Virus record (IMG/VR): IMGVR_UViG_3300023083_000107
Coordinates: 1 to 41,117 of that record
From: a virus
Direction: 5' to 3' (one strand)
Length of the DNA stretch: 41,117 nucleotides
Numbering within the stretch: the stretch's first letter is position 1; every line of letters begins with the position of its first letter. Under the pieces are notes generated by a model. The model was not told the origin of the DNA and ran no database searches. It saw only the letters and a list, made by a program, of their open reading frames with translations. A program made the position numbers and the translations under genes. This document shows positions 2,870-32,467 of this stretch, piece by piece.

Positions 2870-3457
2870 TTACAGCAACCTGTCAAAGCCACACTCAAGC
2901 TTTTTGGTTTTACTATAGTAAGAAAGTCGCACCCCAAAAATCTTGCGCACACTCTTTAGCTTCTCAACTAGATCAGCGTGGCTCATCCTCCTTGCATTCA
3001 GAGTGAACATTAGATGATAAATAGACACCCATGTTATGGCTGCATCCGAAAACTTTATGTTCTTATTAGGCCCCGCAACAGACAAGCACTGGGTCTGACC
3101 AATGATCTTTTCTGCAAAAATATCGTTAACCAACGCGCAAGCGGATACGAATAATCGCCGCCCCTTGAGATGAGGTTTTAAAATAGTAGCAAGCCGTTTT
3201 ATTTTAATTTCATCCTGATTAGTAGTACAAATGCCATACTTATTTGCATGCATTGAAACATGCAAATATCGATAATTTGACTTCCCAAAATCCTTCACAG
3301 CCCTTACAAATTGCTTAAGACTTCTAACATAGCGATAAATAGGATTTTTTCCATGGAACCTTAGTATCGACGAGAGCATCACACCTTCAAAACGGCCATT
3401 CCCCTCATCATCAGGACTCAAACTTTCGATAATAAACACATCCGCGATAGTCTTCAT
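2870..3457 (-). CDS. Caspase/CHAT-like putative cysteine protease
   Basis: A 195-residue protein with no signal peptide or membrane segment. It shows the two spaced motifs of caspase-like peptidases: a strand ending in the His motif YLHVSMHANKYG (candidate catalytic His70), and a strand leading to the Cys motif RLFVSACALV (candidate Cys107). A helix follows, then a third strand (CLSVAGPNK). A single compact domain with no sensor or substrate arm suggests that activation depends on a partner. The likely partner is the small gene 49 bases upstream on the same strand. Both genes are clearly A/T-rich compared with the phage genes, a sign of transfer. The start ATG is preceded by GGTAAG. The fold assignment is from motif reading only; loss of enzymatic activity is possible. 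Confidence 0.6.
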   Translation of the reverse strand: MKTIADVFIIESLSPDDEGNGRFEGVMLSSILRFHGKNPIYRYVRSLKQFVRAVKDFGKSNYRYLHVSMHANKYGICTTNQDEIKIKRLATILKPHLKGRRLFVSACALVNDIFAEKIIGQTQCLSVAGPNKNIKFSDAAITWVSIYHLMFTLNARRMSHADLVEKLKSVRKIFGVRLSYYSKTKKLECGFDRLL

Positions 3458-3506
3458 TCACTTACCAACAGAAGAATACAGGTAAAATATTTCAGACAGT
3501 CATTTT

Positions 3507-3905
3507 CTATACTTCTTCCAGCAAACAGATTTCATATTCATCAGAATTAAGTGCTGAATAATCCATACTCTCCAAAGATAGATTATCAGGAATTAAAAAC
3601 CCTAACGATCGAAAGTAATCGGCATGACCTTTAGAGATAACAGTTCCAGACGATCCATCATGACCTGTCCCATCGACATTAACTGAGTATAACTGTTTTC
3701 CACCTCCGTTAGGCTTGGCATAAACATGCGCGTGCCTTTGAGTTTTAGTAGAGGTATTGGATGAATCAAGTCGGTACGAGTTTTTTGTACCTGGGACTGA
3801 TTTGTATGTCTGATGCTCTAGCGAAAGTACTAGCTCCGAAATGATTTGGCTCTTTTTATCAGCTTCAATATCGCAGAGGTACTCTCTTAACGTTTTAATT
3901 ACCAT
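3507..3905 (-). CDS. Small protein paired with caspase-like gene
   Basis: A 132-residue protein, not assigned to a named family. A helical N-terminal third is followed by a compact polar region with RHAHVYAKPNGGGKQ (57-71) and VDGTGHDGSSG (77-87), rich in His, Gly and Asp. A helix containing HADYFRSLGF (94-103) and an acidic C-terminus follow. The His/Asp/Gly pattern suggests ligand or metal binding, but no catalytic site can be named. It is the first gene of a leftward two-gene unit with the caspase-like gene. It could be a sensor, an inhibitor or a substrate of that protein; this is inference from order only. The base composition is A/T-rich like its partner. Confidence 0.65.
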   Translation of the reverse strand: MVIKTLREYLCDIEADKKSQIISELVLSLEHQTYKSVPGTKNSYRLDSSNTSTKTQRHAHVYAKPNGGGKQLYSVNVDGTGHDGSSGTVISKGHADYFRSLGFLIPDNLSLESMDYSALNSDEYEICLLEEV

Positions 3906-4141
3906 TATCTACCCATTCCTTGTGGTGGCACCAGCGATCGCGTCGCTTGGCCTTATGAAAAATCGACTCCCCGAGCCTAGCAATTAAATATCTAATTGAC
4001 TACACCATGGGTGATTTTTTTCAGCGCAAGGTCGTTGATAAAAAACTCCACTATGTAGAATAAGACCAAGGATACGAAAAGATACGGCCGACTTTGACTG
4101 CAGTCCAACTATTTTTAGTGTTTTCTCCAACTGCACTTAGA

Positions 4142-8056: not shown

Positions 8057-9084
8057 TGAACCCCTCCATAAATAAGCAGTTCGTTGACCGCCGGTTTCTG
8101 ATCGGCAGACGGAAATACCAGCCCATGATCATGTTCGCCGGTGGCGCCGCTGATGCTTTCCGCGATGTGCGTCAGAAGCAGCGTGTCGCCGAGCCCTGCT
8201 TCTCGGTTGTGCAGGTCAATCAGCTGGGATTCGACCGCCCTGCGGACTGCAGTCGTGTCTGGCTCCAGCTTGATTCGATAGACAATGGCCTTCTGTACTG
8301 GGGCGAGCACGTAAAGCTCTGCGGTCACTGGACGCCGCTCTTCTATGTGTATGCGGACGTCGGCCAGTTGTTCGGCATTGGGCACAGGATCCGGGTCATC
8401 GTCGCGCATGAAAAACAACGCAACGGTGCCAGGCCCCATGTACCTGCGGATACACCAGGCCCGGGTGACGCCGGGAACCTCGAGCGACCAGGTCACGTAA
8501 TCATCCTGGTTTCCCCCATGGGCAATGACTTGGTAGGAACGGATCACCCGTGAGCGCAACGCCTCAAGGCCTTCCAGGGCGACACCACCCGACAGACCAT
8601 CCGCGAGCACGGTGAAACGGCCGTTGATACCTTCGATGGGCTGCACAGCATTCATGACCAAGCCCGCCGATGCATTTCCCAGCGCCCCGGGATCCACTGC
8701 CTGAACGTGGGCAATATTGCTGCCCGCCAGGGTCACGACGGCATCTGTCACGCGGTAGACCCGGCCATCACCGAGTTGCATCAGCGTGTCGACATCAAGC
8801 ACCGCTCCGGAAGCAGCATCAAAGCCGACCTGACCGGACGCGGGTTGCGCGGCTTTACGAGGCTGCTGCAACCGTAGAGCAGCCAGGCGCTCCAGCGTCA
8901 TTTCATCGGCGGTATCCGGAAGGATCTGTTCGGCGATCCAGTCCAGATAACCGTAGAGCCCAAAGGCAGCGCCGCTGTGCGCACGGGCGAGTACTTGAGC
9001 ATCGGACTGACGTAACGCGTCACTGGTCAGATCAATCTGCGTACGGCTGATCAGTTGAGCAAGGGTGGGGGTTTCAAACGGCAT
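8044..9084 (-). CDS. Baseplate J-like protein (Mu gp47 type)
   Basis: 346 residues. PTLAQLISRTQIDL at the N-terminus, LERLAALRLQQPRKAAQPA and GYVTWSLEVPGVTRAW-like sequence (here YVTWSLEVPGVTRAW) identify the baseplate J/gp47 family, the main wedge subunit of contractile tails. It overlaps both neighbours by 11-13 bases, which points to coupled translation. Confidence 0.92.
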   Translation of the reverse strand: MPFETPTLAQLISRTQIDLTSDALRQSDAQVLARAHSGAAFGLYGYLDWIAEQILPDTADEMTLERLAALRLQQPRKAAQPASGQVGFDAASGAVLDVDTLMQLGDGRVYRVTDAVVTLAGSNIAHVQAVDPGALGNASAGLVMNAVQPIEGINGRFTVLADGLSGGVALEGLEALRSRVIRSYQVIAHGGNQDDYVTWSLEVPGVTRAWCIRRYMGPGTVALFFMRDDDPDPVPNAEQLADVRIHIEERRPVTAELYVLAPVQKAIVYRIKLEPDTTAVRRAVESQLIDLHNREAGLGDTLLLTHIAESISGATGEHDHGLVFPSADQKPAVNELLIYGGVQWLP

Positions 9085-9472
9085 ACATCACCTGCCACTG
9101 TTCAGATGGATCGAGACGCACGATTTGGCCGCTGGTGGTCGTCAGCACCACGCCGAGATTGAGTCGATTGATCGCCACTCGCTCGCTAGTGATGGCGATG
9201 TCACTGACTTGCTCGTCATCCAGCAACCACTGCAGCGCCTCCCGCGCGTAATATTCGGCATCACCGCGGGTCTGCGCTGTCAGCTTTACTCGCCGCAGCA
9301 ACCACAGCCGAGAACCGATACGGTCATTGGCCACGGATGGGTAGCTATCACCCCACCAGCCGTAGCGCTCTTCATCATCAAGGGGATCATCGGGCCCGGC
9401 CCTGCGCCAGGTGAACAAGCTGATGATCACCACCCGTAGCAATGCTTCTTCGAAATTGCCTGTAATCAACAT
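9074..9472 (-). CDS. Baseplate protein, Mu gp46 type
   Basis: 132 residues of the GP46 family (LFTWRRAGPDD, RYGWWGDSYP, SRLWLLRRVKLT). It has the size and place of gp25-like wedge proteins, between the spike gene and gp47. Its start touches the stop of the spike gene at 9472. Aromatic and Arg-rich blocks are as usual for the family. Confidence 0.9.
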   Translation of the reverse strand: MLITGNFEEALLRVVIISLFTWRRAGPDDPLDDEERYGWWGDSYPSVANDRIGSRLWLLRRVKLTAQTRGDAEYYAREALQWLLDDEQVSDIAITSERVAINRLNLGVVLTTTSGQIVRLDPSEQWQVMYAV

Positions 9473-31744: not shown

Positions 31745-32467
31745 ATGATTGATAAACAAGATATGCGAACCAAATTCAGTGCTCGTCTTCACGAAGCGCT
31801 CGACGATGCAGCCATCAGGAAGCACGGCAGGGGTACTGACATCCTAGAAAAGCTTAAAAGAAGCAGGGTCTCCAAAACACCTCAAGCCATATCCAAATGG
31901 CTCAATGGTGGTGCGATTCCCGAAGCAGATAGCATGGAAATTCTCGCTTACTGGCTGCAAGTGCGTCGTGAATGGTTGGAGTATGGTGTGCTCCCTAAGC
32001 GATCGGTATTCGAGAAATCTCACGGAAACACAAGCCAGCTCAGCCTTCTCGAGCTCCGCCAATCTTTGGGTAAAGTTCCAATAATTTCTTGGGCTCAGGC
32101 CGCCCTATGGCGCAGCAAGATGGCCGAACTGGATATTGAAAACCCAGACGAATGGATTGCCTGTCCGGTGGCGATCAGCAAGTTTGGTTATGCGCTTAAA
32201 GTCGAGGGTGACTCAATGACTAATTTAGGCATGGGACGCACCTACCCGCCTGAAAGTATCATTTTTGTTGATCCTGAAGTCCCGATTGAAGATGGTGATC
32301 GAGTAATTGCGAAACTCCCTAACGCAAGCCAAGCGACCTTTAAAGTTCTGACCTCAGATATGGAGAAACGATTTTTGAAGCCGATAAACCCCCAGTACCC
32401 TACCATTGAGATTGGGAAGGACACTGAGCTGTGCGGGAAAATAGTCGGGTTATTTGTGGCCGAATGA
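31745..32467 (+). CDS. CI-type repressor with S24 peptidase domain
   Basis: 240 residues. The N-terminal DNA-binding part has SKTPQAISKWLNGGAIP (43-59) as helix-turn-helix. The C-terminal LexA-like domain has Ser157 in EGDSMT and Lys200 in ATFKVL. The cleavage region reads SWAQAALW, so the usual Ala-Gly is Ala119-Ala120. It maintains lysogeny by repressing the leftward early promoter and probably others. The start has no clear ribosome site, as often with cI; an internal ATG at 31763 is an alternative. Confidence 0.9.
   Translation: MIDKQDMRTKFSARLHEALDDAAIRKHGRGTDILEKLKRSRVSKTPQAISKWLNGGAIPEADSMEILAYWLQVRREWLEYGVLPKRSVFEKSHGNTSQLSLLELRQSLGKVPIISWAQAALWRSKMAELDIENPDEWIACPVAISKFGYALKVEGDSMTNLGMGRTYPPESIIFVDPEVPIEDGDRVIAKLPNASQATFKVLTSDMEKRFLKPINPQYPTIEIGKDTELCGKIVGLFVAE

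What the first reader, a model, noticed from the sequence alone, without database searches (positions are those of the whole stretch)
2870..3905. Candidate two-gene defence or toxin system: small His/Gly-rich protein plus caspase-like protease
An A/T-rich leftward pair lies at the outer edge of the prophage. The second gene has caspase/CHAT-type His (SMHANKYG) and Cys (FVSACAL) motifs in a minimal 195-residue domain. The first encodes a 132-residue unrecognised protein with RHAHVYAKPNGGG and VDGTGHDGSSG. Caspase-like proteases act in several antiphage systems, normally with a sensor. This arrangement matches none I know.
Basis: partly seen in the sequence, partly recalled or inferred. Interest (0 to 1): 0.75.

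Follow-up and report, generated by a model that had tools for sequence, protein, structure and literature searches.

The report
Minimal caspase-like protease carried by phages
A prophage carries a small, self-contained relative of the caspases (the proteases that run cell death in animals); the gene travels alone between phages, plasmids and bacterial islands, so it is probably a one-gene cargo such as a phage-defence effector and not half of a two-gene system.

Summary
Two A/T-rich leftward genes lie at 3905-3507 (132 aa) and 3457-2870 (195 aa). The caspase call is right: AlphaFold2 gives pLDDT 91, pTM 0.90; the best solved match is the bacterial SAVED-CHAT protease (Z 16.3), then caspases and relatives. 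His70 and Cys107 are invariant in 24 of 24 aligned sequences. The protein matches no Pfam, PADLOC-DB, PHROGs or NCBIfam model credibly.

The two-gene reading is not supported. None of 27 other distinct loci with the protease has the small gene (tblastn); the small protein's one close relative (56%), in a viral contig beside CBASS genes, has no protease nearby. The protease recurs in Pseudomonadota, Nitrospirota and Bacillota, in phage contigs, plasmids and defence islands, with GC below its locus in 21 of 23 loci.

Best explanation: a minimal one-domain CHAT protease, mobile as single-gene cargo, acting as an anti-phage or host-killing effector triggered by a signal not encoded beside it. Fold and mobility are shown; defence, trigger and substrate are inferred. 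New variant of a known kind.

The parts
2870..3457 (-). 195-aa single-domain caspase-like (CHAT-type, clan CD) cysteine protease gene
   Evidence: AlphaFold2 pLDDT 91/pTM 0.90; SAVED-CHAT 8tl0 Foldseek E 1.8e-7 and VIA Z 16.3, caspases Z about 12-13.6; homologues in 27 other distinct loci
3248..3250 (-). codon of His70, predicted catalytic His after strand 62-68
   Evidence: invariant in 24 of 24 aligned sequences; strand limits
3137..3139 (-). codon of Cys107, predicted catalytic Cys after strand 101-104
   Evidence: invariant in 24 of 24 aligned sequences; strand limits
3425..3427 (-). codon of Glu11, invariant acid at the end of strand 4-11; proposed S1-pocket residue (inference)
   Evidence: invariant in 24 of 24 aligned sequences; strand; S1 role from recalled metacaspase structures, not tested
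3507..3905 (-). 132-aa small protein gene, remote relative of DUF6367; upstream of and probably co-transcribed with the protease gene here, but not conserved with it
   Evidence: DUF6367 E 0.078, 13.2 bits against a cut-off of 25; 56% relative in L005; H58, H60, V61, H82, D83 shared with a true DUF6367 member
3458..3506 (-). 49-bp gap between the two genes, same strand; no terminator-like site reported in it
3917..3921 (-). AAGGA, possible ribosome-binding site of the small gene
   Evidence: sequence upstream of the ATG printed; read by eye

Best explanation
The 195-aa gene encodes a minimal, one-domain CHAT/caspase-like cysteine protease (His70/Cys107 dyad). It belongs to a sporadic family that no library searched here models, and it moves alone as accessory cargo of phages, plasmids, probably conjugative elements, and defence islands. 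Most likely it is an effector of the lysogen: kept quiet in the uninfected cell, switched on by something a superinfecting phage makes or alters, it then cleaves a phage protein or essential host proteins and stops the infection, by abortive infection or direct block. It carries no sensor domain, so the trigger must act directly on the protease or through a host- or phage-encoded partner that is not fixed beside it. The invariant Glu11 would favour a basic P1 residue (Arg/Lys), as in metacaspases and gingipains (recalled). The 132-aa neighbour is probably a separate cargo gene that shares the transcript here. Shown: fold, conserved dyad, purifying selection in the pairs that could be measured, sporadic mobile distribution, lack of a fixed partner. 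Inferred: protease activity, P1 preference, trigger, defence function.
For: Fold: model at pLDDT 91/pTM 0.90; Foldseek best hit SAVED-CHAT 8tl0 (E 1.8e-7), then caspase-11, CED-3, C11 protease, Csx29, gingipain; VIA Z 16.3 over 173 residues, rmsd 3.0, next best 13.6. Dyad: H70, C107, E11 and Y147 are the only invariant columns over 24 sequences down to 14% identity; His70 and Cys107 each follow a core strand, as in clan CD (recalled). Coding constraint: dN/dS 0.04, 0.06, 0.12, 0.21 and 0.24 in the 5 of 10 tested pairs whose dS was not saturated (the 0.12 pair has dS 3.4, nearly saturated). Mobility: the window protein groups with a Nitrospirota MAG protein (support 95/90); gene GC below locus GC in 21 of 23 loci; phage contigs L023/L031, L032, L033, L034; conjugative plasmid pBEN; 97%-identical L033/L034 genes with different flanking genes. 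Rarity: beyond the query genomes themselves only one weak match in each of two class samples, of 369 and 289 genomes; 6 of 5,426 E. coli genomes carry subfamily B. No fixed partner in the window's subfamily. Defence company: ThsA+ThsB directly upstream in L007, GmrSD 9 bp upstream in L011, GmrSD upstream in L022, an OLD/Gabija-like ATPase 71 bp downstream in L015, PDC-S02 in L020, a SIR2 gene near L003; GmrSD within 5 kb in 3 of 17 genomes.
Against: No experiment. Neighbour proteins sent to PADLOC were chosen by eye because they looked like defence genes, without a matched control. The GmrSD count was made after GmrSD had been seen there. Several loci show no obvious defence gene in the nearest ORFs (L008, L009, L010, L012, L013, by eye). 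CHAT-type proteases also do non-immune work (recalled). Fold matches share only about 10-20% identity, and activity cannot be read from a fold. Subfamily B does have a local gene module, so 'no partner' may not hold for the whole family.
Confidence: 0.5

Rival explanations
1. The two genes are a true two-gene system: the 132-aa protein is the sensor or the inhibitor of the protease.
For: Same strand, 49-bp gap, no terminator-like site reported between them, similar low GC; the small protein's only close relative also lies in a phage-type cargo region beside CBASS genes.
Against: The small gene is absent from all 27 other distinct fetched protease loci; no DUF6367 match in any of 16 genomes that hold a protease homologue (where the control genomes did not ring either); the small protein's relative has no protease within the 9.6 of 11.4 kb held. 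The two true DUF6367 members found stand among ordinary-looking genes.
Confidence: 0.15
2. Phage weapon, not defence: expressed during lytic growth, the protease cleaves a host protein (a defence protein or a regulator) to help its own phage.
For: Found in several phage contigs; in the window it lies on the same strand as the neighbouring methylase, lysis and tail genes.
Against: In phage contig L033 it lies on the strand opposite to both flanking phage genes, in L034 likewise by one ORF choice, and in L032 on its right side, which suits independent expression from the prophage; it is also found on plasmids, in bacterial islands and next to Thoeris and GmrSD genes, where no phage growth is served.
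Confidence: 0.15
3. Effector of a nucleotide-signal pathway like type IV Thoeris: a TIR-type enzyme encoded elsewhere makes a signal that activates the protease.
For: In L007 a homologue lies 108 bp downstream of a ThsA-ThsB pair on the same strand; a caspase-like protease activated by N7-cADPR is reported for type IV Thoeris (passages of PMC12847820).
Against: L007 already has its own SIR2 ThsA effector; the genes flanking the window pair are not TIR genes and no TIR gene was seen to recur among the neighbours (by eye). The published type IV protein was not available for comparison.
Confidence: 0.1
4. Regulatory or house-keeping processing enzyme, or a catalytically dead scaffold, with no immune role.
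For: Subfamily B in E. coli sits in a module with a divergent HTH regulator gene and LprI-family and small ORFs, on an island with an integrase in 4 of 5 copies viewed, which could be a stress module.
Against: Invariant dyad and invariant Glu11 speak for catalysis; the sporadic spread speaks against house-keeping.
Confidence: 0.1

Closest known systems
SAVED-CHAT protease (PDB 8tl0)
   Same: Closest solved fold (Z 16.3, rmsd 3.0, 173 of 195 residues); a CHAT protease
   Different: 8tl0 chains have 473-478 residues including a SAVED domain; the window protein is the protease domain alone; 12% identity
Borvo (BovA), CHAT protease defence system
   Same: Listed as a CHAT-protease defence system (table in PMC10952713, passages; that it is a single gene is recalled); 1 of 24 family members matches the BovA model at E 0.03
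   Different: BovA model has 711 positions; the window protein has 195 residues and no BovA match
Craspase / Csx29 (TPR-CHAT of type III-E CRISPR)
   Same: Fold match (7zoq, Z 12.3, 20% identity over 160 residues)
   Different: The 7zoq chain has 812 residues; Csx29 has TPR repeats and works with Cas7-11 (abstracts); no such partner here
Type IV Thoeris caspase-like protease
   Same: Caspase-like immune protease; one homologue lies beside Thoeris genes
Pfam DUF6642 (PF20347)
   Same: Member L006 matches residues 40-180 to profile 37-182 of 182 at E 0.0047; 4 of 20 members match at E up to 1
   Different: 17 bits, below the curated cut-off of 27; the window protein itself gives no match
Myoviridae sp. 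ctWaE18 protein A0A8S5MXG5
   Same: Predicted fold TM 0.94 over the window protein, 32% identity: evidently the same family in a phage
   Different: 320 residues, so it carries about 125 extra residues
Pfam DUF6367 (PF19894), for the 132-aa protein
   Same: HxHV ... H-D region shared
   Different: 13.2 bits, below the cut-off of 25

Membership tests
Caspase-like fold (peptidase clan CD) | Caspase/haemoglobinase alpha-beta fold | tested here: met
Caspase-like fold (peptidase clan CD) | Conserved His then Cys, each after a core strand | tested here: met
   24 of 24 sequences; strand 62-68 then H70, strand 101-104 then C107
Caspase-like fold (peptidase clan CD) | Proteolytic activity through the Cys | not testable with these tools
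   needs enzyme assay
Pfam CHAT PF12770 | Score above the curated cut-off | tested here: not met
   no match for the window protein; 15 of 20 members match weakly, best E 0.0063; the six members with a CHAT match score 11-14 bits against 24
Borvo | Full-length BovA match | tested here: not met
   no match; 195 residues against a 711-position model
Type IV Thoeris | TIR gene in the same operon | tested here: not met
   flanking genes are a small DUF6367-like gene, an antirepressor and a methylase; only the flanks were tested
Type IV Thoeris | Protease activated by N7-cADPR | not testable with these tools
   needs biochemistry
Gasdermin-protease pair | Adjacent gasdermin | tested here: inconclusive
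   the partner gives only a weak DUF6367 match in Pfam; its predicted model is too poor to judge by fold
Craspase (Csx29) | TPR domain and Cas7-11 partner | tested here: not met
   the protein is one 195-residue domain; the flanking genes scanned are not Cas genes
Two-gene system with the 132-aa protein | Conserved linkage of the two genes | tested here: not met
   0 of 27 other distinct protease loci
DUF6367 (132-aa protein) | Score above the curated cut-off | tested here: not met
   13.2 bits against 25

The most novel reading that the evidence does not exclude
A self-contained immune caspase: a one-domain protease with no sensor domain and no fixed partner that by itself confers phage defence, is directly triggered by a phage protein or by a common infection signal, and has spread alone between phyla on phages and islands.
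Probability: 0.35. Interest if true: 0.75.

Novelty: new variant of a known kind. Interest (0 to 1): 0.5.

Why it matters
Bacterial caspase-like proteases in immunity are so far known attached to or paired with a sensor (SAVED, TPR/Cas7-11, TIR signalling) or inside large proteins such as BovA (in part recalled; see Closest known systems). A 195-residue stand-alone version that moves alone would be the smallest such unit and easy to test: one gene, two catalytic residues, one plasmid. It would raise the question of how a protease without a sensor stays off until infection.

Tried and rejected
Single-sequence scans of genome contigs and viral contigs with the window protease found nothing; an alignment with plasmid hits was needed. 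Subfamily B in viral contigs: no relative. tblastn of both proteins in phage records: no match, and of the small protein in plasmids: none. Sequence search of the PDB with the protein or the profile gave no credible hit. The NCBIfam hits of the protease (diene synthase, DksA) are taken as chance. A match of the small protein in G850 (L029, E 0.0065) lies in no convincing gene and is taken as chance. The G300 match (L025/L036, E 3.4e-4, about 65 residues of a 539-aa frame) was not counted as a member. The 132-aa model is poor (pLDDT 55), so no fold search was made with it. DUF6642 rang in 0 of 185 genomes and 0 of 14 controls, so that comparison could not be deepened. BovA was sought in 20 genomes or records: 4 had matches at E up to 1, in other frames, not followed. 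Idea rejected: that the DUF6367-like gene is a known antitoxin; the two true DUF6367 members found lie among ordinary-looking genes. Paper searches for DUF6367, DUF6642, SAVED-CHAT with PCaspase and dinD/yicC hotspots gave 0 papers; one search gave one paper, not about such a protein as far as the passages show. No paper on this protein family was seen in the listings; no bioRxiv preprints as such and few subscription journals are in that library.

Rows dropped before counts: L018 (gene interrupted) was left out of the alignments; L023 and L031 (one viral contig, apparently the same gene as L009), L024 (same gene as L007) and L026 (same gene as L012) were merged in the count of 27 distinct loci; L047 (72.7% DNA identity to the Salmonella gene) and L037 (14% identity) fell below the tblastn limit, so neither is in the 27. 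Of 6 E. coli hits, 5 were fetched (H21 was not).

Full report
What is there. Two leftward ORFs at exactly the stated coordinates, 49 bp apart, GC 0.40 and 0.39 in a window of 0.567. They lie between an antirepressor-type gene and a D12 adenine methylase gene, the latter like the Dam genes of Pseudomonas phages. The window is held as a virus record of 41,117 bases; the closest phage DNA over its central 23 kb is a Stutzerimonas phage terminase region, 8% of the query at 75.7%. The host is probably a pseudomonad (inference).

The 195-aa protein. No Pfam, PADLOC or PHROGs family matches it at E up to 1; NCBIfam gives only chance-level matches. tblastn in plasmids gave 3 records of 72,556: Paracoccus versutus pBEN 50.5%, Vibrio ponticus 29.5%, a Salmonella record 26.4%; none in 50,697 phage records. 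An alignment of these with the window protein brought 17 loci from genome contigs and one viral contig; a refined alignment brought 4 viral loci, one of them the contig. E. coli carries subfamily B in 6 of 5,426 genomes. Over 24 aligned sequences only E11, H70, C107 and Y147 are invariant.

Fold. Foldseek against the PDB: SAVED-CHAT first (E 1.8e-7), then caspase-11, CED-3, caspase-8, C11 protease, Csx29, gingipain. VIA-align: SAVED-CHAT Z 16.3, then caspases, legumains, metacaspase, gingipain and separase at about 12-13.6. His70 follows strand 62-68 and Cys107 follows strand 101-104, which is the clan CD arrangement (recalled). Weak profile matches agree: CHAT in 15 of 20 members at E up to 1, best 0.0063; DUF6642 over most of its length in one member, E 0.0047. 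Glu11, invariant and at the end of strand 4-11, sits where metacaspases keep an S1 acid (recalled, not checked on a superposition), hence the guess of a basic P1.

Constraint and spread. dN/dS was 0.04-0.24 in the 5 of 10 pairs without saturation. The tree puts the window protein with a Nitrospirota MAG protein (95/90), and Bacillota and viral rows are in the same part of the tree; 9 of 21 inner branches are open and the L032 placement may be a long-branch artefact. Gene GC is below locus GC in 21 of 23 loci (exceptions L004, L019). In class samples the family is rare: apart from the query genome itself, one weak match each in 369 and 289 genomes. This is the pattern of mobile cargo.

Single gene. 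Around the homologues no neighbour family was seen to recur in the window's subfamily (read by eye). The gene is flanked on both sides by opposite-strand ORFs of at least 100 aa in L008 and L033 (2 of 23 loci, with another ORF choice, adds L034). L008 lies between two long genes that look like conjugation genes by eye. L033 and L034 carry 97% identical proteins with different flanking genes in two viral contigs. In subfamily B there is a local module: in the five E. coli loci viewed an HTH gene lies divergently upstream, and downstream lie LprI-family and small ORFs or, in EC01, two other small ORFs, beside dinD, with an integrase in four of the five; the Salmonella record has the same order. 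So a partner may exist in that branch, but it is not the window's small gene.

The 132-aa protein. Sub-threshold DUF6367 match, E 0.078. One close relative, 56%, in an 11.4-kb viral contig, downstream of a CBASS cyclase (E 1.8e-111) and a 2TM effector (E 3.6e-60) and upstream of an integrase gene. A true DUF6367 member aligns through H58, H60, V61, H82, D83. Its model is poor. In 48 fetched loci the small protein is found only in the window piece L001 and in L005/L028 (one contig); the protease is in 32 loci; both occur together only in L001. Merging duplicates leaves 27 distinct protease loci besides the window, 0 with the small gene. Also no DUF6367 in 16 genomes with a protease homologue, though the controls did not ring there either.

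Defence company. Neighbours chosen by eye matched PADLOC: ThsA 655.7 bits and ThsB 246.7 bits directly upstream in L007; GmrSD-type (Orf5/HEC-06) in L011 and L022; an OLD/GajA-like ATPase in L015; PDC-S02 in L020; SIR2 in L003; none for the L016 neighbour. GmrSD_N has 13 matches in 9 of 17 genomes; 4 of these matches, in 3 genomes (G005, G016, G496), lie within 5 kb of the protease-like gene (with positions). From the genome sizes I expect about 0.03 such matches by chance (my arithmetic), but the family was picked after I saw it there and G496 holds only a remote member. So defence is likely but not shown.

Mechanism. Shown: fold, dyad, mobility, no fixed partner in this subfamily. Inferred: it is an effector protease of the lysogen that is triggered during superinfection. 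Relatives by fold include immune proteases: type III-E CRISPR and Borvo are listed under CHAT protease (table in PMC10952713, passages read), and type IV Thoeris uses a caspase-like protease (passages of PMC12847820; the original paper, Rousset et al. 2025, was not read). The difference here is the lack of any sensor domain or linked sensor gene.

Verdict. New variant of a known kind, interest 0.5.

Noticed in passing
L005:3748-6354: CBASS cyclase and 2TM effector genes, then a 171-aa ORF with CxxC pairs, then the relative of the window's 132-aa protein, then an integrase gene, in one viral contig.
   Followed up: partly
L007:4942-7597: Thoeris ThsA and ThsB followed on the same strand, 108 bp on, by a caspase-like family member: a possible three-gene Thoeris variant.
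   Followed up: partly
L044-L048 (E. coli, beside dinD): Subfamily B member with a divergent HTH gene and LprI-family and small ORFs, on a variable island with an integrase in 4 of 5 copies; one copy (L046) has S8 peptidase plus AAA ATPase genes close by.
   Followed up: partly
L018:7001-8480: A Paracoccus aminovorans copy of the gene is interrupted by an insertion; the 210-aa ORF inside it recurs nearly identically at 8686-9318.
   Followed up: no
window:32504-34033: A/T-rich leftward gene for an AAA_21-type ATPase (E 4.6e-14), beside an S24 repressor-type gene at 31745-32467: another possible defence cargo.
   Followed up: no
window:37808-39994: A/T-rich pair next to the integrase: an Mrr_cat-like nuclease (E 0.00026) and a 359-aa protein without a Pfam match.
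   Followed up: no
L037:4754-5446: A 230-aa remote relative (14% identity to the window protein) with the same His and Cys and a GmrSD-type gene nearby.
   Followed up: partly
BFVD A0A8S5MXG5: A phage protein of 320 aa with the same fold (TM 0.94, 32% identity) plus about 125 extra residues that might be a sensor domain.
   Followed up: no
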